A stretch of DNA of 64,000 bases, taken from positions 1 through 64,000 of the forward strand of contig LUQO01000039.1 in assembly GCA_001627865.1 (NCBI GenBank). Reading direction: 5' to 3'. A program made the translations under genes and the position numbers. Positions 15,147 through 52,647 of this stretch are shown here, piece by piece; within the stretch, counting starts at the first letter, position 1, and the number at the start of each line of letters is the position of its first letter. The notes below the pieces were generated by a model. That model was not told the origin of the DNA. It worked only from the letters and a program-made list of their open reading frames with translations, and ran no database searches. The stretch comes from SAR324 cluster bacterium REDSEA-S27_B3 (GTDB taxonomy: Bacteria; SAR324; NAC60-12).

Positions 15147-15239
15147 TATGATGTTAATCAAAACACTAATTATTCAAACAGATAATTAAATCAATTATTC
15201 TTTCTTCATACCTACTCACTCTTGTTCCCCAAAATCACA

Positions 15240-16388
15240 ATGTCTGCCCGCTATGATTTGCCCCTGATTGGAGCAACTTTATTTTTACTCTCATGGGGAA
15301 CAGTTATGATCTACAGTACAGGCGGGGTCTTTGCCGAACTTCAATACAATGACGGACATTACTTTTTATACCGACACCTTATTCATGTGCTGGCAGGACT
15401 TGCCGCAATGGGTGTAGCTTTGACTGTTGACTACAAAAAATGGAAGCAGTTATCAATATGGCTCAGGGCGGGAATGCTTGTTCTGCTGATTCTTGTTTTA
15501 ATTCCTGAAATAGGACACGAAGTAAAAGGAGGACGCCGCTGGCTGCGTTATGGTTCATTGAGTATCCAGCCTGCTGAATTACTGAAGGTTGTTTTGATTA
15601 TTTATGTGGCATCGTATCTGGAAAGGAAACAAGAACTGCTGGCTTCTTTCTTTCGTGGTTTAACGCCAAATTTTATAGTCACAAGCATTTTTCTTTTTCT
15701 GGTCCTGCTGCAACCGGATTTTGGCAATGTAATTTTGATGGCAACAACAGTCCTGCTTATGCTGTACGTAGGTGGCGGCCGCCCAGTACACATTGCCAGT
15801 AGTCTGATAGGTGTGGGAATAATTGCCGGACTATTGATTGCCTCGCATACCTATCGTGTCCAGCGAATGCTGGCTTTTTTGAATCCATGGGATGATCCGC
15901 AAAATTCAGGGTTCCAAATTATCCAATCATTCATCGCCCTTGGCACAGGAGGATGGGTTGGCAGAGGTCTTGGCGAAAGCCTTCAAAAAAGGCTTTTCCT
16001 GCCTGATGCCCACACTGATTTCATTTTCGCCATTATTGGAGAAGAACTTGGGTTTTTGTGGATATTTGTTTTGATCATCCTCTTTTCTGTTTTTATTTGG
16101 CGGGGCTACTGGATTGCGTGGAATGTTCGGGATACATTTGGTAAACACTTGTCTTTTGGCGCTACAACAATTTTAAGCCTTCAAATTATTCTGAATCTTT
16201 TCGTCGTAGTGGGACTGCTCCCTACAAAGGGCTTACCGCTTCCTTTTATAAGTTACGGTGGAACTTCTCTTGTAGTTTCAATGTTTTTGACCGGGCTCTT
16301 GCTTAATATAAGTGCGCGTCTCAGGCCTGTTGAAGAAACTCCCGAAAAAGGTTTAGCCACTGCCACTAAGCCCCCACCTAATGTGTAA
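15240..16388 (+). CDS. ftsW: Septal peptidoglycan glycosyltransferase FtsW (SEDS family)
   Basis: Ten-helix SEDS protein that polymerises lipid II at the division septum. Diagnostic stretches are GRRWLRYGSLSIQPAELLK (about residue 98), FQIIQSFIALGTGGWVGRGL, LPDAHTDFIFAIIGEELGF, and PTKGLPLPFISYGGTSLV near the C-terminus. These fit FtsW better than RodA, notably the SIQPAE and DAHTDFIFAIIGEE versions. I chose the ATG at 15240; an in-frame TTG at 15222 would add six residues. No other mur/fts genes are nearby, which is unusual because ftsW normally sits in the dcw cluster. Its last 8 bp overlap the ankyrin gene. Confidence 0.88.
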   Translation: MSARYDLPLIGATLFLLSWGTVMIYSTGGVFAELQYNDGHYFLYRHLIHVLAGLAAMGVALTVDYKKWKQLSIWLRAGMLVLLILVLIPEIGHEVKGGRRWLRYGSLSIQPAELLKVVLIIYVASYLERKQELLASFFRGLTPNFIVTSIFLFLVLLQPDFGNVILMATTVLLMLYVGGGRPVHIASSLIGVGIIAGLLIASHTYRVQRMLAFLNPWDDPQNSGFQIIQSFIALGTGGWVGRGLGESLQKRLFLPDAHTDFIFAIIGEELGFLWIFVLIILFSVFIWRGYWIAWNVRDTFGKHLSFGATTILSLQIILNLFVVVGLLPTKGLPLPFISYGGTSLVVSMFLTGLLLNISARLRPVEETPEKGLATATKPPPNV

Positions 16389-19300
16389 AGTTTTTTGTTA
16401 TAATTTATTCCGGATAAGATTCACAAATTGGTTCCGTCCTTCCTTTCAGAAACCATTTATCCGGATAATATTCCTGCTGGCATTCAGCTGCTTTTTTCTC
16501 TCCATTTTTTCCCCGGGTCAGTCCATACAGCTCTCAACCAAAATTGTTTTTGCACAATCTGCTGAGAAAGAAACAGATACCAAGAAAAATCATCGACTGG
16601 AAAATTTCTTAATCAGCACCAAAGATCGTGATGACTGGACTAGACTGATGCTGGCAATTTTGAAAAGTGTGCCCGCAGTAGAGCGTATCTTATCTCAGGA
16701 TGTAAGTGTAAATGTACGTGGAACAAATAGATTCCACGGTGTAACTCCTTTAATGTTTGCATCCAGAATCGGAGCTGAGGTGATTGTAGAATTACTGGTA
16801 AAAAAAGGTGCCCGGCTGAATGATACAGATACTTTAGGCAAAACAGCTTTGATTGAAGCAGCAAAAATGGGTTATTTAAATATCGTCAGGTTCTTACTTC
16901 AACAGGGAGCAAATCCAAACGCTGAGACTAATCAAAAATGGACCGCATTAATGTATGCATCACACAGCGGACATGATGAAGTCCTGGAATATTTATTAAT
17001 ACATGGTGCAAATGCTGATTCGCAAAATAAATTGGGTATGTCACCAGTTATGTATGCTTCCCAGAACGGTCATATTAAAATTGTGCAAAAATTAATTAAT
17101 CGTGGTGCAAATGTTAATTTGACCTCGCTCAATGGGTCAACAGCATTGATGTGGGCAATCAGTTCCGGTCACGACAATATTGCTGAACTGCTGTTGAAAT
17201 CTGATGCAAAACCCCACTCTTTCGAAAATGAGTTTAAAAGATCACCATTGCTTCTGGCTGCAAAGCATGGAAGAGAATCCATCGTTAATAGTTTGTTATC
17301 TTCTGGAGCAGATTTGAAAGCTGTTGACAAAGATGGAGCAAACGCTCTGATACTGGCTCTTGAAAACAGCCATTTTGACACTGCTCTACTTCTGATTGAA
17401 AAAGGTATCCAGGTTAATAATCCGGACAAGAAAAAAGTTACTCCTCTTATGATCTCTGCCTCTAAGGGAGATTTTGACCTGACCAACCTGCTGATTGACA
17501 AAGGGGCGGAAATTAATGCCAGGGATTCCGCTGGTAAAACCGCATTGATGTATGCCGCCGCAAAAGGAGACATAAACATTGTAAAATTGTTGCTTCGGGA
17601 ACAGAGCAGACTTGATTTTCGTGACTATTTAGGCAGGACGGCATGGATGTATGCAGTTGAAAACCAAAGCCATTCAATGGTGAAATTTCTCAGCAAAAAG
17701 GAAATTGATAACCATGAAAATCTGTTTTTCGCGGTTTCAAACGGACACCTTGAAGCAGTTAAAATCCTGCTCAAATTAGGTGCAAAATTAAATGTCCGTG
17801 ATAAGCAAGGTTGGACACCATTGATGCGGGCAGCAAATAATGGACATACAAAAATTATGGCCATTCTGATCAAAAACGGGGCAACAATTAACAGGTTTGA
17901 TGAAGTAAGCCCCACTAAGTCCGGCTGGACCCCACTGATGCTTGCTGCTGGAGGCGGTCATATCGAAATTGTGAAGATTCTCATATCAAAAGGCGCCGAT
18001 CTGACAGATAGAGACAAGGATAAATGGAGCGCATTGACATGGGCTTCCTTCATGGGCCATATCGATGTTGTAAATTATTTGACACAAAATGACGCGATTA
18101 TTGACCAGCGCGGTTCTGACGGAGCAACCCCCCTGATTTGGGCAGCATCTCAGGGGCATACAAATGTAGTTCAGGCATTATTAAGCCAAGGAGCAAAGAT
18201 AAATATGAAAGATATCAATGGCAAAACTGCTTTGGCACATGCAGCACTACAAGGGTATTTTTCTACAGCAAAGACACTGATTAAATATGGAGCGGACTTA
18301 GATCGCAATTTGCTCTATGCAGCACGTAGAGGATACAACAAAATGGTAATATTTCTACTGAACGAAAATGCTGAAATTGATTATATTTCTGCAAACAGAG
18401 AAACTTCTCTGGCTCTTGCGATTCAGGAAAAGCATTTGGAAACAGCAAGAATTCTACTTGATCACGGAGCAAATACTGCTGTACAGAATGCACAGGGACA
18501 AACACCTTTGATGTCAGCGGTTTTAACGGGTGAAGCTAAAATTGTAAAACTCCTTCTTCAACATCAAAAACAGGCAAGTCCGATATCTGAGTTGGAAACT
18601 ACAGATTTTATCGGAAATACCCCGTTAATGGTATCTGCAGATAAGGGGTTTTTAGACATAACAAAAATGCTGCTTGATCGAAAAGTAAAAGTTGAAACCA
18701 AGAACCGCTGGGATGAAACAGCTTTGATACTGGCTTCTTCCAAAGGTTTTCGTGAAATTGTCACACTGCTGATCAAGCAAGGAGCAAATATACGCTCCAG
18801 AGATGTTGCTGAAAAAACAGCCTTGTTAAGAGCCGCTCAAAATGGACACCTGTTAATTGTTGAGATGCTTCTTGCACTGGGCGCGAATCTTCATTTTAAT
18901 GCTTTTGACCTTGGAGGTGAAGGAGGAACTCCTCTAATACAGGCAGCAAGAAATGGCCATAAAGATGTTGTGCAGATACTTCTGAACGCAGGCGCAAATA
19001 TCAATACAACTGAACTTATGTTTCATCATTCAGCTTTGATGGTCGCAGCACTAAATGGACACGTGAAGACGGTGGATCTCCTGCTGAATGCAGGTGCTGA
19101 TCCCATGTTAAAAGACACCTCAAAGCGTTCAGCCCTATTACTTGCTGCTTCAAATAACCATTTTTTAGTTGTAAAACAGCTGAGGGATGCCGGCCAAAAT
19201 GGGAATCAAGTTGATTCCAACGGTAACGGCATTTGGCACTTAATGGCAATGAGTGATGTTGATAAAGAATCCGGACAAATCAAACTCGACTTGCAGCAAA

Positions 19301-19539
19301 AAGATCAGGACACTACTGCGATAATGAAAGAGCTGATCTCGCTTGGAATACTGCTGGACACCTTTAACAATGAAGGTAAAACAGCTTTGATCATTGCGGC
19401 TAAACAAGGAAAGGCAAAGATAGTAAAAAACCTGCTCGAATTGGGTGCCTCAACTGAAATACTTACGCCGGAAGGAGAGAGTGCTTTGACGTTAGCGGAA
19501 GCAGCCGGACACAATGAAGTTATAAAACTGCTGCGCTGA
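16381..19539 (+). CDS. Large exported ankyrin-repeat protein
   Basis: A 1052-residue protein built almost entirely of ankyrin repeats. Residues about 25-60 contain a hydrophobic helix after a basic N-terminus and then an alanine-rich AQSAEKE cleavage-like region, so it is probably secreted across or anchored in the inner membrane. From about residue 110 to the end, roughly 25-28 repeats of 33 residues can be followed by the recurrent G-TPLM-AA--GH--IV--LL--GA pattern; several copies are degenerate. It starts within the last codons of ftsW, with an 8-bp overlap. Ankyrin arrays bind other proteins; a periplasmic binding or scaffold role is the most that can be said. No enzymatic domain is visible. 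Confidence 0.85.
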   Translation: MCKVFCYNLFRIRFTNWFRPSFQKPFIRIIFLLAFSCFFLSIFSPGQSIQLSTKIVFAQSAEKETDTKKNHRLENFLISTKDRDDWTRLMLAILKSVPAVERILSQDVSVNVRGTNRFHGVTPLMFASRIGAEVIVELLVKKGARLNDTDTLGKTALIEAAKMGYLNIVRFLLQQGANPNAETNQKWTALMYASHSGHDEVLEYLLIHGANADSQNKLGMSPVMYASQNGHIKIVQKLINRGANVNLTSLNGSTALMWAISSGHDNIAELLLKSDAKPHSFENEFKRSPLLLAAKHGRESIVNSLLSSGADLKAVDKDGANALILALENSHFDTALLLIEKGIQVNNPDKKKVTPLMISASKGDFDLTNLLIDKGAEINARDSAGKTALMYAAAKGDINIVKLLLREQSRLDFRDYLGRTAWMYAVENQSHSMVKFLSKKEIDNHENLFFAVSNGHLEAVKILLKLGAKLNVRDKQGWTPLMRAANNGHTKIMAILIKNGATINRFDEVSPTKSGWTPLMLAAGGGHIEIVKILISKGADLTDRDKDKWSALTWASFMGHIDVVNYLTQNDAIIDQRGSDGATPLIWAASQGHTNVVQALLSQGAKINMKDINGKTALAHAALQGYFSTAKTLIKYGADLDRNLLYAARRGYNKMVIFLLNENAEIDYISANRETSLALAIQEKHLETARILLDHGANTAVQNAQGQTPLMSAVLTGEAKIVKLLLQHQKQASPISELETTDFIGNTPLMVSADKGFLDITKMLLDRKVKVETKNRWDETALILASSKGFREIVTLLIKQGANIRSRDVAEKTALLRAAQNGHLLIVEMLLALGANLHFNAFDLGGEGGTPLIQAARNGHKDVVQILLNAGANINTTELMFHHSALMVAALNGHVKTVDLLLNAGADPMLKDTSKRSALLLAASNNHFLVVKQLRDAGQNGNQVDSNGNGIWHLMAMSDVDKESGQIKLDLQQKDQDTTAIMKELISLGILLDTFNNEGKTALIIAAKQGKAKIVKNLLELGASTEILTPEGESALTLAEAAGHNEVIKLLR

Positions 19540-19579: not shown

Positions 19580-19813
19580 TCAGCTTCCTCTGTTCCAGTA
19601 GTTTATCACCAGCTTTTTTTCACGTTCGATGAATTCATCTTCATCAATTTTTCCCTCTGTTAAACCTGCTCTGAGATAATGTAATTTTGCAAGGAACTCT
19701 TCTTTTGAATTACAATGACTCCAGCCTTTATCCTTGATATGAACCAGTTTTTCATACTCCTCCGGAGAAACTTCCAGAGGGTTATCCAAAGCATGTGGTG
19801 TTAAAAGGATCAT
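19580..19813 (-). CDS. Small conserved-looking hypothetical protein
   Basis: A 77-residue soluble protein on the minus strand between two plus-strand genes. The sequence has an EVSPEEYEKLV segment near residue 14, and a C-terminal helix pattern LRAGLTEGKIDEDEFIERE that resembles the SHOCT/GvpG type of short acidic helix-turn-helix. I do not recognise a family with certainty. Codon use and a proper ATG start suggest it is real. Its stop lies 40 bp from the end of the ankyrin gene. Confidence 0.6.
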   Translation of the reverse strand: MILLTPHALDNPLEVSPEEYEKLVHIKDKGWSHCNSKEEFLAKLHYLRAGLTEGKIDEDEFIEREKKLVINYWNRGS

Positions 19814-22433: not shown

Positions 22434-22581
22434 TCCAAACTCAAGTTTCCCTCATTTCTGCCGATAATCTTGATCAAGAAGAATATGCCTATTCATTCCG
22501 GAACATTCTGAATATGGAAAGTTCAACTAAAATGAGAAGGATATTCCGATTCAATCAATTTGATCAAAAAATGAGGTGCAA

Positions 22582-23358
22582 ATGCCTGTCAATTACCTTA
22601 ATGTATATCTTTTCGCCATCTTTGGAGCCCTGTTAGCAACACTGATTGGAATTGTGGTCAGCTATTCCGGCATGTCCGAAACAAGCTTTCTTGTCACTCG
22701 AGGAATGGAAATCACAACCTATTATCTTGATAAAAATCGCCATGACCTTTATGTATATGGGCTGGTTTACAGTATAACATTTGGAATAGCCTTGCTGCTG
22801 TTTCTTGCGGCAATAGTCATTCCTACTAAAGAGCAAATCAAAAAACGTTCAGCAACTCCTCAAATAGCCGGAACAACCGGAACAGGAACAATTTTCACCG
22901 ATGAAACGTCTGCAGAGGAAGAAGAATCCAGTATTGATACTGAAGCTGTACCTGAGTCAGATCAATCTCTTGAAATTGAACTGGAACCTGATGTCGAGTC
23001 TTTTGTAGACGATGAAGACGATGAAGAGGAAGAGTCTGCTCTTACAGGAAGTACTGAAGATGAAGATTCAGATGTGATATATGGTACAGGAAGAATCACA
23101 GATCAGGCACATAGAACTTTCATTCTAAACAGCCCTGACAGCGCAGTAAAATTCCTGCTGCGTAAAGAACTGAACGGCAAACCTTTGAAATCAACACAAG
23201 ATGAAATCTATGAAAACTGGCAGGATCGTGGATTGTCCAGAGGCAAATTGCGAAAGCATTTTCTCAAGATAATGGAATGGGATAGTGTGCCCGAATTGGA
23301 AGTCAGCGAAATTTACGAGCAAGTTAAAGACAAAGTATATGAAATCAAACGAACCTGA
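22582..23358 (+). CDS. Membrane protein with acidic linker and C-terminal helical domain
   Basis: Unrecognised protein of 258 residues from the ATG at 22582; a GTG two codons earlier is possible. Two hydrophobic helices (about 8-28 and 55-80) flank a 25-residue loop. They are followed by a highly acidic low-complexity linker (about 105-165, rich in E, D and S). The C-terminal 85 residues look folded, with AVKFLLRKELNGKPLKST, DRGLSRGKLRKHFL and a final helix. A GAGG ribosome-binding site lies 5 bp before the ATG. It precedes a MoxR ATPase gene by 42 bp, so a MoxR-linked membrane role is possible. Confidence 0.7.
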   Translation: MPVNYLNVYLFAIFGALLATLIGIVVSYSGMSETSFLVTRGMEITTYYLDKNRHDLYVYGLVYSITFGIALLLFLAAIVIPTKEQIKKRSATPQIAGTTGTGTIFTDETSAEEEESSIDTEAVPESDQSLEIELEPDVESFVDDEDDEEEESALTGSTEDEDSDVIYGTGRITDQAHRTFILNSPDSAVKFLLRKELNGKPLKSTQDEIYENWQDRGLSRGKLRKHFLKIMEWDSVPELEVSEIYEQVKDKVYEIKRT

Positions 23359-34392: not shown

Positions 34393-36801
34393 TCAACGAG
34401 TATCAGCAAATATCCATTGACGGTCAAATGATCGATATGAATATCTCTCTATTTTTGGTGGGGATGTATTTTTTGACAATTCACTTAATGGTATTTGAGA
34501 AGTACCTTCAAGCGAGTCGCACCTCTTGTCTATCTTTCTGTCTCTTGTTTCCTTGAATAATTCTCTCATTTTTTCGGAGTTGAGCAACTTTTGCCAACGA
34601 ACCCCCAATGTTCCAGGATCATGACAAATCGGCCAAGTTCGCTTTAATTGTATCCCGGAATGCTGCCAGGGCATGAGATCAGTCAAAAGCGGCCAATCGA
34701 AAAAATCTCCAGTTCCAGCCGGACGAAAAGCAGCATGCCATTCCTGTGGACAATCTTCCCAATTTAGTTCTGCAAAATTTTCTACTTTGTCCAAGGTTCG
34801 CAGTTTTTCCTCTCTTGTACCTTCGATGCTGGTGTAATAAATAACAGCTGGCGATTCAGGATTTGTTTTTTTAGAACGGACTGCCACGGCGATTGCTACC
34901 GGAGTCTGGATGTCAAATATATTTTCGTCCTGTCGTGTGCCGCGACCTTCACCACCAAGGTCAAGAATCCAAATTTGATCACACAGACGGCGCATGTGCT
35001 CCCGCATTCCGCAAAAAGCAACACCATCCAAAAAACTGGATGCAGTGATAAAACTGACAATGCCTGATCCCTTAGAAGTTTGATGTTCAAAAACTTTCCA
35101 CAAGGCCCAGCGCCAGAAATAAACATACAGATTGTAAAGATTCTTGACATGAAGTCCATACCCAGCCTCAGCTGCCGGATCTATAAAATCATGTAAAATT
35201 GCAGGAAGATTACGTGAAGCTCCTTCTGAAACGGGAATGATTTGACGACCTTCACCATCATCTCCCCAGCGCACCCAACCGCCGGTATGCGCTCTGTTTT
35301 CTTCCGTGATTGCCTCGTGGCGTCCATAAGGAGGATTCCCCAGACAAACGATAACAGGAATATTGCTTTTTACATGCAACGCCCTTTTATGTTGCTCTGC
35401 AATTACCTGCAAAAATGCCGGTGGTACCGGCGGTTTAGTATGTGGGCTTTCCAGAGTGTCTGTCAGATGTATGTTTGCTCCTGCTGTTGGCAGCTCAGCT
35501 CCACGGTCACGCAAAGCACGACTGACACGCAATTCACTGACTGCGTATGGACCGGTCATCAGTTCAAAGCCATACAGATTTTCAGCCAGCGAAGTGGCTT
35601 GTCCGGCAACAGCTCCTTCACCCTGTTCAGTTTTGATCCTATCCAGAGCATGTTCGATCACGCCCAGCAAATAGGTGCCTGTACCAACCGCGGGATCAAG
35701 GGTAATTACTTCGGAATCCGCAAACCCCATTTGCTTGCCAAAGCGATTGACGAGCAAATCGTCAATCAAACGCACTTGACAGCGTACTACCTCCACAGGC
35801 GTGTAGTAGGCTCCGGCCTTCCTGCGTAATTGTGGATCATAGACCGCAAGAAAATCCTCGTAAAAATTCAACCATGGATCCTCCAATTCCTGAAAAGCAT
35901 TGGTCGGTACTGCCGAGATCACACGAAGAAGCAATTTGATTGAAGCTGCGATTTCCTGATTTTCTCCGGAATCTGTCAACACCAGCAATGCGCGGGAAAG
36001 CAGGCTGTGTTCATTTCTCAAAACATTTTCCGCGTTTTGAAAAGTGAGCGGATCGGCTCCTTCAGTGCGCCCGAGTAATAGCGCAAAAGTCACTGTTTGC
36101 GCGTAAGCATCCGCAAATTGTTCATCTTCTGCTTGGGGGAAGAGCAATTGCCTCCAGTCCTTAGCCAGTTGAATAAGAGGCGAATCTGGATTTTTCAAAG
36201 CGTCTTTTACATCCTCCCGCAACATCCGGCACAGCGGAGCAAGCATTGTAGCGAAACCTTTGAGATCAATCTTGCCCTTGCGGTCAAAAGGCAGAATCGG
36301 TTCCCACAGCAAGAAATCGTGCAACAATGATTCAACTTTGACAGTATCTTCAAGTGTAACTGCGTTTTGACCATCGACAGCCACATCCCCTGTTAGTCGA
36401 ACAACACTGCCTACCAATTCACCGTTACGGTATAAGGCCCATTCATTGCCGTCAGAATAGAGAATATTTGGTATAACTTTGAAGCGGTTGAATTGTTCAC
36501 GGTCATGACCGGTGAAACGTGAGGCGAGAGCGCCTTTTCCGGGAGCCTTGAGTTCAGCGTATCCTGCCAGAATCTGGTTACGATTCAGGGCAAAGTCAGG
36601 AATCCCCATATTTTCAGAAAGGTGAGACTCCCCAACACAAACTATTTCCCAATTCAGAGCCCTCGCAAAATCCCCCATCAAGTTCGCAAAAGGAGTGATC
36701 AATTGTTCTTCCGGTTCACCCTGTGTAGGCTGTGACATTTTTTCTGTCACCTTTTCGGCAAAGTCTCTCAATGCATTGAAGATCAGGTTGCCTTGGCTCA
36801 T
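34393..36801 (-). CDS. Type ISP-like DNA methyltransferase/restriction protein, N-terminal part
   Basis: An adenine-N6 methyltransferase of the type IIG/ISP kind, 802 residues before an in-frame TGA. A possible nuclease-like N-terminal domain (about 25-150) has TPFANLM and GIPDFALN then GYAELKAPGKG, which looks like a PD-(D/E)xK site. The helical connector leads to RKAGAYYTPVEVVRCQV and the SAM motif DPAVGTGTYLL (about 360-385), and the catalytic NPPY is in CLGNPPYGRHEAI (about 485). Compared with classic type ISP enzymes it lacks the large helicase. Full length with the downstream fragment would be 1109 residues. It overlaps the vapC stop by 4 bp. Confidence 0.85.
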   Translation of the reverse strand: MSQGNLIFNALRDFAEKVTEKMSQPTQGEPEEQLITPFANLMGDFARALNWEIVCVGESHLSENMGIPDFALNRNQILAGYAELKAPGKGALASRFTGHDREQFNRFKVIPNILYSDGNEWALYRNGELVGSVVRLTGDVAVDGQNAVTLEDTVKVESLLHDFLLWEPILPFDRKGKIDLKGFATMLAPLCRMLREDVKDALKNPDSPLIQLAKDWRQLLFPQAEDEQFADAYAQTVTFALLLGRTEGADPLTFQNAENVLRNEHSLLSRALLVLTDSGENQEIAASIKLLLRVISAVPTNAFQELEDPWLNFYEDFLAVYDPQLRRKAGAYYTPVEVVRCQVRLIDDLLVNRFGKQMGFADSEVITLDPAVGTGTYLLGVIEHALDRIKTEQGEGAVAGQATSLAENLYGFELMTGPYAVSELRVSRALRDRGAELPTAGANIHLTDTLESPHTKPPVPPAFLQVIAEQHKRALHVKSNIPVIVCLGNPPYGRHEAITEENRAHTGGWVRWGDDGEGRQIIPVSEGASRNLPAILHDFIDPAAEAGYGLHVKNLYNLYVYFWRWALWKVFEHQTSKGSGIVSFITASSFLDGVAFCGMREHMRRLCDQIWILDLGGEGRGTRQDENIFDIQTPVAIAVAVRSKKTNPESPAVIYYTSIEGTREEKLRTLDKVENFAELNWEDCPQEWHAAFRPAGTGDFFDWPLLTDLMPWQHSGIQLKRTWPICHDPGTLGVRWQKLLNSEKMRELFKETRDRKIDKRCDSLEGTSQIPLSELSKNTSPPKIERYSYRSFDRQWIFADTR

Positions 36802-37802: not shown

Positions 37803-40800
37803 TTACTCCATCTCCCCTTGAATTTCCAAAATCGTGGATTCAAGGGCTTCCAATGTTTGTTCATCAGCATTTTCCCACATTTGTCTTTCATTAGCTTCAA
37901 GCAGCCGTTGAGAGGCATCACGCAAAGCCAGCGGATTATGTTCGCGGAAGAATTTTTGCTGTTCCGGATCAAGCAGAAGTTTATTTGCGAGGTCTTCGTA
38001 TTGATAATCGGCAACAATATCGCAGGTTGCATCGTAGCCAAACAAATAATCAACTGTGGCAGCCATTTCAAGCGCACCCTTGTAGCCATGTTCGCGCATT
38101 GCCTCCTGCCATTTCGGATTAAGAACACGGCTGCGGAAGACGCGGTTGAATTCTTCCTTGAGTGTTCGTACTTTGACTTTTTCGGGATTGCTGGAATCAC
38201 CGTGATAAACGGAAGGAGCATCCCCGCGTATTTCAGTTATGGCCGCCTGAAGACCACCCTGAAACTGAAAATAATCATCTGAATCAAGAATATCATGTTC
38301 ACGATTATCCTGATTCTGGTGTACAATTTCTACAGAACTCAAGCGGTCACGCAATAAGTTGATTTCCTCTGAACTTGTGCCGTCTGAATCATAAGCATGT
38401 CCGCCCCATTTTAAAAATACCTTGGTCAAGTCACCGCGGGTTTCCCAGTTGCCTGCGTCTATCAAAGGCAGGAGCCCAGTACCATAAGCCCCAGGTCCGG
38501 AACTGAAAACCCTCAATTCCGCCAGACGTCCTGCATCAGCAGTAGAAACTCCATTGTCCTGCAGACGCTGCTGATCAGCCAGCCATGCCGCACGCACTGG
38601 ATTCATTTCTTCAGGTTCATCAAGTTTTGCCAGCCTTTTCGGAACAGTTGAGAGTAAACGCATCACGTCACCAAAAGCGTCCCGGAACATTCCGGACACA
38701 CGTAGAACCACATCAACCCGCGGACGTCCCAAAACTGAAAGCGGGATAATTTCAAAATCAACCACTCTTCCTGAAACAGGTTCCCAAACTGGTTCGCATC
38801 CCCAAAGAGCCAGAGCCTGCGCGATATCATCTCCTCCTGTTCGCATGTTTGACGTGCCCCAAATCACTAGCGCTGTTGTTTTGGGGAATTCACCATGATC
38901 AGCACGGTAACGCTCAATCAGTTCCTCAGCCAAATCCTGCCCGCAGCGCCATGCTGTCTGGGTGGGAATCACACGAGGATCGACTGAATAAAAATTGCGC
39001 CCCGTCGGTAGAACATCAATCCTGCCACGAGTTGGCGCACCGGAAGGCCCCGGACTGACAAATCGTCCTTCCAGCGCAAGTGAAAGACTGCGTGTTTCAT
39101 CCACACAACGTTTGAACCTTGGCAGCAAAGTTTCATTAAGCCAGTTTCGGAGTTTTGCAGTGCCTTCGTTTTCTGTAAATTTTTTGCTGTTAATTTTGCT
39201 TTTGGAAGATAATTCGCTATCAACCCAGTCTCTTGATAATATCTCAATCTCGTCCCTTTCACTGATTAAAAGTGAGTCAAGATCAAAATCGGAATCCTTC
39301 CCCAAAAGTGCATGCAATAATCCCGGATGATCGACGGAAGACATCCGGAGCAGACTGAGCAGGAAATCAATTCGTTTTTCTCCTTCCGGAAGCTGTCCGA
39401 AAATATGCAAACCTGAACGGATCTGGCTTTCTTTCAATTCACAAAGATGATTGCTGAGGGCATTGAGAGGATCATCGTCCTGAGGCAATTCGGAACTCCA
39501 GTCAGCATTTTCCAGCAAATGTTCAATTTCGTGCTCAAGTTCATGGGCTCGTTCCGGATAAAGTGTTTCGCAGTGCGCGTGTTCTTCCAGCAGCCTTTCT
39601 GCCTTATCAAATTCCTCGTAAAGTCCTGCGCGTGTCAGAGGCGGCGTGAGATGATCTATAATAACCGCGGACGCACGGCGCTTGGCCTGTGTTCCTTCTC
39701 CGGGATCATTGACGATGAAAGGATACAAATTAGGCAGGGTGCCTAAGGCAATTTGTGGGAAATCATCCGGCCCCAATGCCACACTGCGTCCAGGCAGCCA
39801 TTCCAGATTGCCGTGTTTGCCGAAATGAATCACGGCATTTGCCTTGAAATCTTCTTTGATCCACTGATAAAAAGCCAGGTATTCAGGCGGAGGCGGCAAA
39901 GCAGGATCATGATAAATAGCCTGAGTCTGCAATCCATAACCACGCTGCGGCTGAATACCGATGAAAATGTTCCCGAAGCGCTTTCCGGCCACTGGTATCG
40001 GGTCAGACAATTGTTGCGGAACTTCCAGATTATTTGTCCATTGTTTGGACAAAGCATCCATGCTTGATTCCGGAAGAGTGGAAATCATACCAGACAAACG
40101 TTGGCGTGATATACCTTGGTCCGGAGCTTTACCATAACTCATTTCCTCGTCGTTTGTAATTCCGGCCTGCAGCATCCGGATCAGTTCATTTCCGTTTTCA
40201 GGAATGTTCTCCTCTGCACCTTTATCAGCTAAAGCATAACCTCGTTTTTCCAGATCCTTCAAAAAGGCAATCACACTGGCAGGTGTGTCCAGACCTACAC
40301 CGTTTCCGAGGCGGCTGTCTTTGTTTGGATAATTTGCCAGAATAATAGCCACACGTTTTTCTGAATTTTCCGTGCGTCGCATACGTACCCAGTTCACAGT
40401 GAGTTCAACCACATGCGAGATCTGTGTGTGATCCGGTGCAAGGCGCTTCAGTAGAAATTCCATTTCCGGATCATTTTCTTCTCCATATGAAAAAACTTCT
40501 TCCTGCTTGAATCCCACAACAGTGCTGAAAAGCCGTCCGTCAGTTTCCGGCAGCGCAACCGACATCGCCGCATTTGAAGCCGAAAACCCTCGCGGATTGC
40601 TCAGCCATGCCTTCCGATCTTCAGTGGAAGTGGGCACCTGAATTACAGGACAATTCAGTGTCTCCAAAAACGAAACACGCTCGTCCTTGTGACTACCGGA
40701 AGGTCCGCTGCCGATAGAAAAACTTTGCATGGTCAAAATCGCGTCGGGAGGCTCAACCTCAGCTTTTTTAAGCAATTCCTGCTGTGCCTCATGTTCTCTT

Positions 40801-41501
40801 AATGAATAGGCGTAAAATGCTGAAACTGCCAGCCCCTGCGCCTGTAAAGACTCAGTCAAAGCCTCAATTACTGCCATGTCCCCGGTTTGATGCAGCGCAC
40901 GATAAAATGTTAGCCACACCCTGCCAATCTCTGGACTGTTTTTTTTGTTTTTCGATTTGACCGGCACCCATCCAAAAGTCTGGACTTCCAATGCTTGCGG
41001 GAATCCTTCAGTTTTGTTTTCCAGCAGCATTTCCACAGCGTCAGCAGCATGCGTTATATTTTCCATACCGCCTTCTCGGAAATAAGAAAACATCCTGCGT
41101 ACAAGCCGTTCAGAATAATCATTGAACTGCATAAGCTCCGGATCCCACTCATCAGTCCCTGGAATCACCACAATACGTGTTTTGGCGCCATGGTTTTTGA
41201 TATGAAGGATTTCATCCAATAGATGATGGAAATAGCCATAGCCGCCATGCAAACGAAAAATCGCCAGTCTGGCTTTACATAAAACATGATCGGCGTAATC
41301 TTCTGCGGCCTTTGGATGCAACAGGTGGCTTGCCTGCATTAATCGCAGTTTTTTGCTATATCGGCTGCCCCAAACTTTTGCAATTCCAGCAAGTTCAGTA
41401 TCAGCTGTGCTGATGAATAAAATTTCAGCTGGAGTCTGGCGTACGGCCTCCAGCTTGCGTTCAAGATCCAGCTCTCCGGATTGTGTTGCGACTCTATGCA
41501 T
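37803..41501 (-). CDS. cobN: Cobaltochelatase-type protein CobN
   Basis: Large subunit of the ATP-dependent cobaltochelatase of the aerobic B12 pathway, related to BchH/ChlH. The 1232-residue protein shows LFISTADTELAGIAKVW at the start, an ADYADHVLCKARLAIFRLHGG region, VIHFGKHGNLEWLPGRSVAL near residue 555, LPTGRNFYSVDPRVIPT near 840, and VDVVLRVSGMFRDAFGD near 935. Length and order match CobN. Neither of its usual AAA+ partners (chelatase CobS and CobT) is present, although a MoxR ATPase lies 14 kb away. All other corrin genes here belong to the cobalt-early pathway, where CbiX inserts cobalt, so CobN's role is unclear. Confidence 0.93.
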   Translation of the reverse strand: MHRVATQSGELDLERKLEAVRQTPAEILFISTADTELAGIAKVWGSRYSKKLRLMQASHLLHPKAAEDYADHVLCKARLAIFRLHGGYGYFHHLLDEILHIKNHGAKTRIVVIPGTDEWDPELMQFNDYSERLVRRMFSYFREGGMENITHAADAVEMLLENKTEGFPQALEVQTFGWVPVKSKNKKNSPEIGRVWLTFYRALHQTGDMAVIEALTESLQAQGLAVSAFYAYSLREHEAQQELLKKAEVEPPDAILTMQSFSIGSGPSGSHKDERVSFLETLNCPVIQVPTSTEDRKAWLSNPRGFSASNAAMSVALPETDGRLFSTVVGFKQEEVFSYGEENDPEMEFLLKRLAPDHTQISHVVELTVNWVRMRRTENSEKRVAIILANYPNKDSRLGNGVGLDTPASVIAFLKDLEKRGYALADKGAEENIPENGNELIRMLQAGITNDEEMSYGKAPDQGISRQRLSGMISTLPESSMDALSKQWTNNLEVPQQLSDPIPVAGKRFGNIFIGIQPQRGYGLQTQAIYHDPALPPPPEYLAFYQWIKEDFKANAVIHFGKHGNLEWLPGRSVALGPDDFPQIALGTLPNLYPFIVNDPGEGTQAKRRASAVIIDHLTPPLTRAGLYEEFDKAERLLEEHAHCETLYPERAHELEHEIEHLLENADWSSELPQDDDPLNALSNHLCELKESQIRSGLHIFGQLPEGEKRIDFLLSLLRMSSVDHPGLLHALLGKDSDFDLDSLLISERDEIEILSRDWVDSELSSKSKINSKKFTENEGTAKLRNWLNETLLPRFKRCVDETRSLSLALEGRFVSPGPSGAPTRGRIDVLPTGRNFYSVDPRVIPTQTAWRCGQDLAEELIERYRADHGEFPKTTALVIWGTSNMRTGGDDIAQALALWGCEPVWEPVSGRVVDFEIIPLSVLGRPRVDVVLRVSGMFRDAFGDVMRLLSTVPKRLAKLDEPEEMNPVRAAWLADQQRLQDNGVSTADAGRLAELRVFSSGPGAYGTGLLPLIDAGNWETRGDLTKVFLKWGGHAYDSDGTSSEEINLLRDRLSSVEIVHQNQDNREHDILDSDDYFQFQGGLQAAITEIRGDAPSVYHGDSSNPEKVKVRTLKEEFNRVFRSRVLNPKWQEAMREHGYKGALEMAATVDYLFGYDATCDIVADYQYEDLANKLLLDPEQQKFFREHNPLALRDASQRLLEANERQMWENADEQTLEALESTILEIQGEME

Positions 41502-50577: not shown

Positions 50578-52647
50578 TTAATGATCAAGAGAGGTTTGCT
50601 TATTAATGTTTCGGGAAACAGAATGAGTTTCTTCTGCCTCCTGTTTTTTGTGATAGCCGCGTGGAGTGTAAACTTTTTCCACTCCATTTGGCAGCTTCAA
50701 TATCCTTGATTGACTTGATCCTATCAGCACCAAAGTCAGCATGTCTGCTTCGGTCGGATCAAGGTTTTCTAGTGTTAAGATTTCAACCTTTTCCCCCTCG
50801 CGTCCAAGGTTTTTTGCCAGAATAACAGGAGTTTCCGGAGGACGGTGTTTCAGGAGTGTTTTTTGTGCATCAGCTAATTGTGTTGTTCTACGCTTCGAGA
50901 CTGGATTATAAAACGCAATCACAAAATCTCCTTCTGCTGCCGCAGAAATCCTTCGTTCAATTGTGTCCCAGGGAGTAAGTAAATCAGAAAGTGAGATACT
51001 GCAGAAGTCATGTCCAATAGGCGCTCCTGCAAGTGCGCCTGCGGCCTGCATGGCAGAAATTCCCGGTGTTGAAACAATCCGTATCCGCTGCCATTCTGCA
51101 CGCTTTTCAGCTTCCACTACTTTGCTTTCAAGCAGTTCAAATACAAGAGTGGCCATGGCATAAATTCCAGGATCACCGGATGATATTAAAGCCACTGATT
51201 TTCCCTGAGCAGCCAAATTCAACGCATGTCGTACCCGAGTTTCTTCCTGTCCCAACTCAAATTGGTGTAATATGCATTTTTGCTCTGGATGTTGTCTTTC
51301 GAGCAAATCCGAAATCAAGTCTAAATAAAGACCATATCCCACCCAGTCAGTGGCCTCTTTCAACATTTCTTCAGCTTCCGGAAGTCTCCATTTTGGTGAT
51401 CCCGGACCCGTGCCTACAATGTATAAAGTGCCTTGAGCCTTACCTGTATTTTTGGGATAAATCAATTCAGGAGACTCTGCAATAGCGCAGGTGGTGCGTT
51501 CGGATTTGATTTTCGGCACAATCAGTTTTCCGGATTTGCCTGCCGCGGCTAAAGCAGAACCTTCAGCAACACCATGACAGCCGACTTCCTGAAATACAAT
51601 TTCTGAAGGATTTTCAAGTTTTGGCGATTGTGCTTCCAAAGTCGAGGCATCAAAGAATCTTGCCGGACACTCGGTTGCTGTCTCCCCGCACAGATTATTT
51701 GACAAAGCATGAATAGCCGGTTCATCGGATTTGAGGTCAATTGAAACCACAGCGGCAACACTTTCGGCAGCAATTGTATTTTTCTGCAAAGCATTCCGGA
51801 CAAGTAAAATTAATTCTTCCGGATCAGTCCCGCGTTCGCACCCCACCCCCACGGCTATTGATTTTGGATGGTAAACCAGATGTTCCGAACTTCCGGAAAT
51901 TGCTGTTGTAGTCAGCGAAATTCTCAGTTTAGCATTTTCTGAAAACCGTAAACTGCTATCACGTATCCACTTAAAAAACCCCGGCATGTAATCCGGGGCT
52001 ACCATATTGTTTGACCCTGCAGAATTCGGGGATACCATTTTGTTTGACCCTGCAGAATTCGGGGATACCATTTTGTTTGACCCTGCAGAATTCGGGATTA
52101 CAGGTTTGCTCCTCGGAGAAGAATCAAGACAGGAATGATTTTCATTAGAAGAGAGCATCACAGACTCACCTGCCAGCATACTCACGCTAAATTCTTTCAC
52201 GTTCTGCGGATTTGCCAGAACAAAACCATCCGGAGGTTCGTCCAGCGCAATTCCAAACCGCAAATCTCCGGCAGTGGTGATGGCCGCGTTTATTCCTAAT
52301 AACTCAGCAATTTTCCGTGCAAGATCATTTGCCCCATGGTGTCCTCCAAGCAAAGGCGCTACAGCGCTGCCATCCTCCGCTACTGCAACCACAGCAGGTT
52401 CGCTGTGCTTATCATTGATTGATTTAGCAACTCCCCTAATTAAAACTGCCGATGCGCACACTCCCACAATTGCAACTCCATCTTGAAACAATTTGGACAA
52501 ATGTTCCATCGCGTCATTGAAAAAAACATCTGCTTCAGTAACACGTCCAGTCTTGCCGTGCAGTTCGGCGTCCAGTGATGTTGCTATTTTATTTGCTACT
52601 GGAAAAGCGCTGATCCCCAGAAAAAATACTGCAATATTTTGACTCAT
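50578..52647 (-). CDS. CbiG-CbiH(CobJ) fusion: cobalt-precorrin-5A hydrolase / precorrin-3B C17-methyltransferase
   Basis: A 689-residue bifunctional B12 enzyme. Residues 1-175 are the N-terminal and central CbiG domains (FFLGISAFPVANKIA, VGVCASAVLIRGVA, LLGGHHGANDLARKI). About 265-385 is the CbiG C-terminal/CobE domain (VGVGCERGTDPEELILLV, VSIDLKSDEPAIHALS, GVAEGSALAA). About 405-670 is the C17 methylase (YIVGTGPGSPKW, VALISSGDPGIYAMATLV, STPGISAMQAAGALAGAP, FVIAFYNPVSKRR). The linker between CbiG parts (about 184-217) consists of three copies of an 11-residue repeat. CbiG opens the ring lactone and releases acetaldehyde; CbiH contracts the ring. Overlaps cbiL by 4 bp. Confidence 0.93.
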   Translation of the reverse strand: MSQNIAVFFLGISAFPVANKIATSLDAELHGKTGRVTEADVFFNDAMEHLSKLFQDGVAIVGVCASAVLIRGVAKSINDKHSEPAVVAVAEDGSAVAPLLGGHHGANDLARKIAELLGINAAITTAGDLRFGIALDEPPDGFVLANPQNVKEFSVSMLAGESVMLSSNENHSCLDSSPRSKPVIPNSAGSNKMVSPNSAGSNKMVSPNSAGSNNMVAPDYMPGFFKWIRDSSLRFSENAKLRISLTTTAISGSSEHLVYHPKSIAVGVGCERGTDPEELILLVRNALQKNTIAAESVAAVVSIDLKSDEPAIHALSNNLCGETATECPARFFDASTLEAQSPKLENPSEIVFQEVGCHGVAEGSALAAAGKSGKLIVPKIKSERTTCAIAESPELIYPKNTGKAQGTLYIVGTGPGSPKWRLPEAEEMLKEATDWVGYGLYLDLISDLLERQHPEQKCILHQFELGQEETRVRHALNLAAQGKSVALISSGDPGIYAMATLVFELLESKVVEAEKRAEWQRIRIVSTPGISAMQAAGALAGAPIGHDFCSISLSDLLTPWDTIERRISAAAEGDFVIAFYNPVSKRRTTQLADAQKTLLKHRPPETPVILAKNLGREGEKVEILTLENLDPTEADMLTLVLIGSSQSRILKLPNGVEKVYTPRGYHKKQEAEETHSVSRNINKQTSLDH
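51998..52096. repeat. Three tandem 33-bp repeats inside the cbiG-cbiH gene
   Basis: Copies occupy 51998-52030, 52031-52063 and 52064-52096; the last two are identical and the first differs at three positions. On the coding strand each unit encodes an 11-residue PNSAGSNKMVS-like peptide, so frame is kept. The repeat sits in the hinge between CbiG domains, where a length change would be tolerated. Such perfect copies imply recent expansion by slippage. Confidence 0.9.

What the first reader, a model, noticed from the sequence alone, without database searches (positions are those of the whole stretch)
16381..19539. Very large exported ankyrin array translated from within ftsW
Seen: N-terminal export-like helix and about 25-28 ankyrin repeats, start 8 bp inside ftsW. 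Ankyrin proteins of this size in free-living bacteria are unusual, and coupling to a cell-division glycosyltransferase suggests a periplasmic scaffold acting at the septum or envelope. That role is inference.
Basis: partly seen in the sequence, partly recalled or inferred. Interest (0 to 1): 0.5.

Follow-up and report, generated by a model that had tools for sequence, protein, structure and literature searches.

The report
Giant exported ankyrin protein behind ftsW
In one family of uncultured ocean bacteria (SAR324), the gene for the cell-division wall builder FtsW is followed directly by a gene for a very long, probably exported, spring-shaped ankyrin protein; the pairing has outlasted rearrangement of much of its surroundings, so the ankyrin protein may be a division or envelope factor not described before.

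Summary
Window 16381-19539 is a real 1052-aa gene whose start overlaps the last 8 nt of ftsW. It encodes a signal-peptide-like leader and 28 ankyrin repeats. The neighbour is FtsW, not RodA, by curated cut-offs. Contig titles of close relatives place it in SAR324. In the 31 genomes held for its family, an orthologue lies directly downstream of ftsW in 20 of 24 assessable genomes (5 of 8 genera). In g2 and g7 most other neighbours differ but the pair remains. The other four (three genera) have ftsW without it. In 12 sister-lineage loci ftsW has no ankyrin neighbour; in the five typed the next gene is MurG-type. None of 63 other ankyrin loci shows FtsW/RodA in the stretch fetched.

The array is under purifying selection (dN/dS 0.22 in one pair; leader 0.93), has no cysteine in 990 residues (about 11 expected) and keeps repeat order well in the genus, less beyond it. 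Export is likely but unproven. The proposed role, a periplasmic partner of FtsW or the septal wall machinery, is inference; another envelope role is not excluded. My searches listed no paper on such a pair. New variant of a known kind: exported ankyrin encoded beside an envelope enzyme.

The parts
15222..16388 (+). ftsW, 388 aa from TTG (an in-frame ATG at 15240 is an alternative start)
   Evidence: Pfam FTSW_RODA_SPOVE E=3.5e-103; NCBIfam TIGR02614 ftsW 392.3 bits over cut-off 337.5, RodA model 294.6 below its cut-off 336.7; best PDB matches are FtsW chains 25hr and 8bh1, E 6e-72 and 9e-72
16381..16388 (+). 8-nt overlap of the ankyrin start codon with the end of ftsW (ATGTGTAA)
   Evidence: a -8 ATG is present in 11 of the 13 g1 junctions measured (from 12 genomes; the other two are +25)
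16381..19539 (+). exported-type ankyrin protein, 1052 aa, 28 repeats
16381..16554 (+). leader, residues 1-58: positively charged region, hydrophobic stretch, VFA-Q cleavage-like site (signal peptide, predicted by eye and hydropathy)
   Evidence: dN/dS 0.93 in residues 1-62 against 0.22 in the array, one species pair
16594..16740 (+). N-terminal cap, residues 72-120, with W86, G114 and F118 invariant in 18 of 18
16729..19536 (+). ankyrin array, residues 117-1052
18898..18927 (+). conserved insert between repeats, residues 840-849 (NAFDLGGEGG); N840, D843, G846, G848 and G849 invariant in 18 of 18: candidate binding site (inference)
19580..19813 (-). small convergent gene (77 aa, unknown family) after the ankyrin gene
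   Evidence: found at the 3' side of the ankyrin gene in g1, g4, g7 and g8 loci, 56-82% identity to the window's; not found in the three g2 loci, of which one ends inside ank and one 1.1 kb after it; no Pfam family over its cut-off

Best explanation
A two-gene unit, ftsW then ank, in one family of SAR324. The ankyrin protein is exported (predicted) and forms a 28-repeat superhelical solenoid in the periplasm (predicted). The most likely mechanism, inferred, is that it binds FtsW, its partner FtsI, or another protein of the septal wall-building complex from the periplasmic side, and stabilises, positions or regulates septal peptidoglycan synthesis. Being made from the same transcript just after FtsW (inferred from the spacing) would keep the two matched in amount. 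It adds to an ordinary division set; the one candidate gap that I looked into (FtsQ) proved not to be one. Shown: the gene, the repeats, the identity of FtsW, the conserved adjacency, purifying selection, repeat order kept in the genus, and presence of RodA, FtsZ and an FtsQ-like protein. Less firmly: FtsI by exclusion and FtsA by eye. Inferred: export, periplasmic residence, contact with FtsW/FtsI, function.
For: Adjacency: orthologue directly downstream of ftsW on the same strand in 20 of 20 genomes where the gene and its 5' side are assembled (13 g1, 3 g2, 2 g4, 1 g7, 1 g8), -8 to +25 nt from its stop in the 19 measured. In the g7 and g2 stretches held no menF, menD, lnt, SDR, hyp or MoxR match lies beside the pair. 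FtsW identity. One change of the ank label on the FtsW tree. Leader: [AV]-[FY]-A at the same columns in 12 of 12 g1 sequences, AFA in g7, SFA in g8. Cysteine: 0 of 990 in the window protein, at most 2 in any of 18 orthologues, 11.3 expected from 28 window genes. dN/dS 0.22 for the array. Repeat order: best match at the same place for 28 of 28 repeats in two g1 relatives, 18 of 27 in g8, 13 of 26 in g4, 13 of 27 in g7, against 1 in 28 by chance. Binding-face positions more conserved than convex-face ones (0.576 against 0.527 over 25 repeats, p=0.007; position sets recalled from DARPin practice). RodA, FtsZ, an FtsQ-like protein in 12 of 13 genomes, two class B transpeptidases, one beside MreC.
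Against: Genera g3, g5 and g6 (4 genomes) have FtsW with no ankyrin neighbour and no full-length orthologue elsewhere. Other gene pairs of the region survive at the same distance (menF-menD and hyp-PlsY-CaCA in g2, hyp-PlsY in g7), so adjacency alone is moderate evidence. Rate comparison did not single out FtsW: partial correlation ank-FtsW given RodA 0.74, ank-RodA given FtsW 0.56. The leader is the most hydrophobic stretch in only 13 of 18 orthologues (one tie, four lower), and in g8 and g4 it is weak. Three of the 28 control genes also lack cysteine, a 729-aa one among them. The genome holds two more ankyrin proteins with export-like or membrane-anchored N-termini away from the division genes mapped here. 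In g2 repeat order is barely kept (6 of 26; 4 of 26 by the sliding test). The ank+ group on the FtsW tree is weakly supported (78/49). The structure model rests on 18 sequences, pTM 0.55.
Confidence: 0.4

Rival explanations
1. A general periplasmic or membrane-attached scaffold that only shares a transcript with ftsW. Its partners lie elsewhere in the envelope, and adjacency is inherited because the two genes overlap or nearly touch and are not easily parted.
For: Overlapping or nearly touching genes; other pairs survive as long; other export-type ankyrin proteins exist in the genome away from division genes; four family members do without it.
Against: In g2 and g7 the genes do not overlap (gaps of about 8-20 nt) and stay together while other neighbours differ.
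Confidence: 0.31
2. An inhibitor or guardian of a cell-wall enzyme other than FtsW, working like Bdellovibrio Bd3460, which covers the active site of periplasmic DD-endopeptidases.
For: Bd3460 is an exported ankyrin protein, downstream of and co-transcribed with its target's gene, that protects the cell's own wall (PMC4686830: abstract, part 1 of 2 of Results and one passage seen).
Against: No wall hydrolase among the typed neighbours; the only constant upstream neighbour is ftsW. 28 repeats against six in Bd3460.
Confidence: 0.13
3. A surface or secreted ankyrin protein used on other cells (predation, host or particle contact).
For: Many bacterial ankyrin proteins act on host cells (statement in PMC4686830); NCBIfam ankyrin effector models hit the repeats, all far below their cut-offs.
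Against: Repeat order kept in two g1 relatives and purifying selection, constant link to a housekeeping division gene, and no Pfam domain beyond the repeats.
Confidence: 0.09
4. A cytoplasmic ankyrin protein; the hydrophobic N-terminus is accidental.
For: The leader is unconstrained in sequence (dN/dS 0.93), weak in g4 and g8, and not the most hydrophobic stretch in 5 of 18 orthologues, one of them a tie; no dedicated signal-peptide predictor was available.
Against: Ala at the cleavage-like site is kept in 12 of 12 g1 sequences and a net charge of +2 to +7 precedes the hydrophobic stretch in all 12; cysteine is absent.
Confidence: 0.07

Closest known systems
Bdellovibrio Bd3460 (exported ankyrin inhibitor of the peptidoglycan endopeptidases Bd3459 and Bd0816; PMC4686830)
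   Same: Signal peptide plus ankyrin repeats; encoded downstream of a peptidoglycan enzyme; periplasmic
   Different: Six repeats, 23 kDa, target is a hydrolase; here 28 repeats beside a glycosyltransferase, target unknown
Pseudomonas aeruginosa AnkB and the ankyrin protein of the Leptospira katE operon (seen as a passage and a reference title in PMC10294975)
   Same: AnkB is a periplasmic ankyrin-like protein needed for full KatB activity; in Leptospira an ankyrin gene shares an operon with katE
   Different: Partner is a catalase; none among the typed neighbours here
Long eukaryotic ankyrin solenoids (ankyrin-B 24 repeats, PDB 4rlv; NOMPC, PDB 5vkq)
   Same: Among the best fold matches of the model (ranks 1 and 3): long superhelical array
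   Different: Cytoplasmic eukaryotic proteins (recalled); 24-26% identity, expected for any ankyrin array
ftsW-murG arrangement of the dcw cluster
   Same: A gene directly after ftsW, nearly or actually overlapping (E. coli; five sister-lineage loci)
   Different: Here the place of murG is taken by the ankyrin gene

Membership tests
FtsW (SEDS glycosyltransferase of division) | Score over the curated FtsW equivalog cut-off, and below that of RodA | tested here: met
   TIGR02614 392.3 bits (cut-off 337.5); RodA model 294.6 (cut-off 336.7); the other SEDS gene of the genome scores as RodA
FtsW (SEDS glycosyltransferase of division) | Conserved HTDF motif (that its Asp is catalytic is recalled, not from a call) | tested here: met
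   AHTDFIFA aligned with AHTDFVFA of the solved FtsW chains 25hr and 8bh1
Ankyrin repeat proteins | Tandem 33-residue repeats over the Pfam cut-off, helix-turn-helix pairs in a solenoid | tested here: met
   Pfam Ank_2 589 bits; AlphaFold2 mean pLDDT 86, 28 helix pairs by my count
Exported (Sec signal peptide) proteins | Charged, hydrophobic and cleavage regions at the N-terminus | tested here: inconclusive
   Pattern present in g1, g2 and g7, weak in g4 and, by the hydropathy measure, in g8; no signal-peptide program on hand; cleavage and location not tested
Bd3460-type self-protection ankyrins | Encoded beside a DD-endopeptidase gene | tested here: not met
   Neighbours are ftsW, a 77-aa gene and lnt
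Bd3460-type self-protection ankyrins | Binds and inhibits a wall hydrolase | not testable with these tools
   needs biochemistry
AnkB-type catalase ankyrins | Encoded beside a catalase (adjacency of ankB and katB recalled; operon with katE in Leptospira) | tested here: not met
   no catalase among the neighbours typed

The most novel reading that the evidence does not exclude
A lineage-specific divisome component: a 28-repeat ankyrin spring in the periplasm that is made together with FtsW, binds the FtsW-FtsI synthase (perhaps through the invariant insert at residues 840-849 and the tryptophans W86, W516, W549 and W554) and tunes or mechanically couples septal wall synthesis. It would be the first ankyrin protein of a bacterial divisome that I know of.
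Probability: 0.25. Interest if true: 0.75.

Novelty: new variant of a known kind. Interest (0 to 1): 0.5.

Why it matters
FtsW is a widespread polymerase of the bacterial septum (established knowledge). A giant repeat protein tied genetically to FtsW in a marine clade would add a new kind of part to the divisome and suggest that exported ankyrins act as custom partners of envelope enzymes (catalase, endopeptidase, now possibly a SEDS polymerase). It can be tested by expressing the pair in a laboratory strain of E. coli.

Tried and rejected
RNA families: no Rfam match at the gathering score in the window. Promoter and terminator scans near chance (13 found, 11.5 expected; 4 found, 4.4 expected). 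Shine-Dalgarno absence before ank (1 of 18 with an SD-like motif) proves nothing about coupling, because most control genes lack one too (19 of 95). FtsQ: Pfam found it in only 4 of 31 family genomes, which suggested that the ankyrin protein might replace FtsQ; a search with the open frame of one relative that holds a partial FtsQ match found a relative in 12 of 13 genomes, some over the first two thirds only, so that idea was dropped. SPOR domains occur in 31 of 31. Rate covariation with FtsW against RodA: not decisive. Wider pairing: of the 80 best loci kept (of 86), the 63 beyond the close group show no FtsW/RodA match in the stretch fetched; many stretches are short, and two titles (a Deltaproteobacterium, an uncultured proteobacterium) do not exclude SAR324. 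NCBIfam hits to MzaA and Dot/Icm ankyrin effectors are repeat similarity only, all below cut-off. Literature: searches (25 of 100 papers listed; 9 of 11; 3 of 3; 6 of 6; 15 of 3,033; 15 of 17) listed no paper whose title or abstract start speaks of an FtsW-linked or divisome ankyrin; the library lacks most subscription journals. The Babela paper that holds both words lists FtsW among genes lost (passages).

Rows left out of counts: 7 of 31 family genomes could not be assessed (G002, G006, G008, G010, G027, G029, G030: gene missing or contig ends at it). Alignment A1 left out partial or broken copies (G001 second contig, G005, G006, G008, G028). The junction of G005 could not be measured: its ftsW and ank frames are broken, as are other genes of that stretch, so assembly error is likely; it was counted as paired because both lie side by side. 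One of the two G001 contigs lacks menD before ftsW. The FtsW tree left out G005, G006 and G008, and has long branches. Of the 21 same-order and same-class genomes, 12 loci were examined (4 of 10 same-order; 8 of 11 same-class), and the next gene was typed in 5 of the 12.

Full report
What is there. The ORF at 16381-19539 is real and 1052 aa long. Its ATG overlaps the last 8 nt of ftsW (ATGTGTAA) and no other ATG/GTG/TTG of that frame lies near. Pfam finds ankyrin repeats throughout. A repeat HMM counts 27-28 units in the unbroken full-length g1 orthologues and 22-29 in the other genera. The AlphaFold2 model of the window protein (mean pLDDT 86, pTM 0.55, 18-sequence alignment) shows, by my count, 28 helix pairs after a short cap, with a low-confidence leader. 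The best solved folds are long ankyrin solenoids such as ankyrin-B and NOMPC.

The neighbour. The upstream gene is FtsW by NCBIfam cut-offs, and the other SEDS gene of the genome is RodA. Two class B transpeptidases lie on other contigs than ftsW, one beside MreC (so PBP2), the other FtsI by exclusion. FtsZ lies on the contig of the latter, with an FtsA-like ORF, recognised by eye, before it. An FtsQ-like protein is found in 12 of 13 genomes searched. So the organism seems to have an ordinary division and elongation set whose dcw cluster is broken up.

Who it is. A search of named bacterial and archaeal contigs gave 17 close loci, titled SAR324 cluster, Lambdaproteobacteria, Deltaproteobacteria, Proteobacteria or uncultured proteobacterium; the window's own record is unnamed, so SAR324 is inferred from these relatives. 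Sixteen of the 17 show FtsW in the fetched stretch; the seventeenth contig begins inside the ankyrin gene. None of the 63 other loci kept does.

Conservation of the pair. The family holds 31 genomes. Of 24 that can be assessed, 20 have the ankyrin gene directly after ftsW on the same strand (13 g1, 3 g2, 2 g4, 1 g7, 1 g8) and 4 do not (G018, G020, G021, G026). Distances from the ftsW stop are -8 in 11 of 13 g1 junctions measured and +25 in the other two, -4 in g4, +1 in g8, about +8 to +20 in g7 and g2. In g1 the pair sits between menFD and lnt where contigs reach; one of two G001 contigs lacks menD there. In g4 and g8 menFD is elsewhere while lnt, hyp, MoxR and PlsY still follow. In the g7 and g2 stretches held (15.1, 7.7 and 12.7 kb) none of these genes lies beside the pair. 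As a control, some other pairs also survive: menF-menD and hyp-PlsY-CaCA in g2, hyp-PlsY in g7. In the ank-less genera a conserved gene about 0.1-0.65 kb after ftsW (4 of 4 loci) is a helix-turn-helix protein in the two typed. In 12 sister-lineage loci ftsW has no ankyrin neighbour, and in the 5 typed the next gene is MurG-type. On an FtsW tree the ank label needs a single change, with weak support for the ank+ grouping (78/49).

Export. Ala at the cleavage-like site is kept in 12 of 12 g1 sequences while the leader drifts, and in these 12 a net charge of +2 to +7 precedes the hydrophobic stretch. Against this, the leader is the most hydrophobic stretch of the protein in only 13 of 18 orthologues (one tie, four lower), g4 lacks the charge, and in g8 the measure did not pick the leader. 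In the closest pair (G009, G007) dN/dS is 0.93 in residues 1-62, 0.22 in the array and 0.04 in ftsW. The window protein has no cysteine after the leader, against 11.3 expected from 28 window genes, of which three also have none; no orthologue has more than two. Two other ankyrin proteins of the genome carry export-like or membrane-anchored N-termini, by eye, and 0-1 cysteines. This supports, and does not prove, a periplasmic place.

The array. In two g1 relatives each repeat matches best the repeat at the same place (28 of 28); in g8 18 of 27, g4 13 of 26, g7 13 of 27, g2 6 of 26, against 1 in 28 by chance; a sliding test independent of the repeat grid gives 27 of 28, 18 of 28, 13 of 27, 11 of 28 and 4 of 26 (g1 by one relative). 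Binding-face positions are a little more conserved than the convex face. Invariant residues include W86, F118, W516, W549, W554, N840, D843, G846, G848 and G849: first candidates for a binding site.

How it may work. Some bacterial ankyrin proteins act on the product of a neighbouring gene. Bd3460 lies over the active site of a wall endopeptidase whose gene is co-transcribed with its own (PMC4686830: abstract, part 1 of Results and one passage). Ankyrin proteins interact with and promote catalase in other bacteria, AnkB among them (passages and a reference title in PMC10294975). By analogy the best reading is that this protein partners FtsW or the FtsW-FtsI synthase in the periplasm, made with it from one transcript. 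That step is inference. The main rival is a general envelope scaffold that only shares a transcript. Absence from three genera shows that FtsW of this family can work without it.

Novelty. The listings of six paper searches (some cut) show nothing on an FtsW-linked or divisome ankyrin protein. It does not meet the gene-context tests of the Bd3460 or AnkB kinds. I rate it a new variant of a known kind, with a bolder reading (a new divisome part) at 0.25.

Noticed in passing
window 19580-19813 (-): A 77-aa convergent gene follows the ankyrin gene in g1, g4, g7 and g8 loci (56-82% identity); only a sub-threshold GvpG Pfam hit. Its constancy next to the pair is unexplained.
   Followed up: partly
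L184:1763-3067 (G000:C25) and L185:1009-2376 (G000:C42): Two further ankyrin proteins of the same genome, one with a signal-peptide-like start, one with a single membrane helix before the repeats (by eye): exported ankyrins may be common in this lineage.
   Followed up: partly
L088:9362-10447 (-), G018: In an ank-less genus a MurG-type glycosyltransferase gene lies about 1.2 kb after ftsW on the other strand, with a relative at the same place in G020.
   Followed up: partly
G000:C34:175754-176038: A second FtsZ-like match (324-aa open frame) besides the one on C47.
   Followed up: no
window 34393-36801 (-): 802-aa protein with an N6 DNA methylase domain and only the first 95 of 342 positions of the Type ISP specificity domain: a restriction-modification enzyme that looks cut short or split.
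   Followed up: no
window 37803-41501 and 50578-52647 (-): CobN-type chelatase and a CbiG/tetrapyrrole methylase fusion: probably a cobalamin gene cluster.
   Followed up: no
window 22576-23358 (+): 260-aa conserved protein with two hydrophobic stretches by eye and no family over cut-off; its C-terminal half recurs in other open frames of these genomes.
   Followed up: no
L042 (G005): ank, ftsW and several neighbours are each split into pieces, probably assembly errors in that genome.
   Followed up: no
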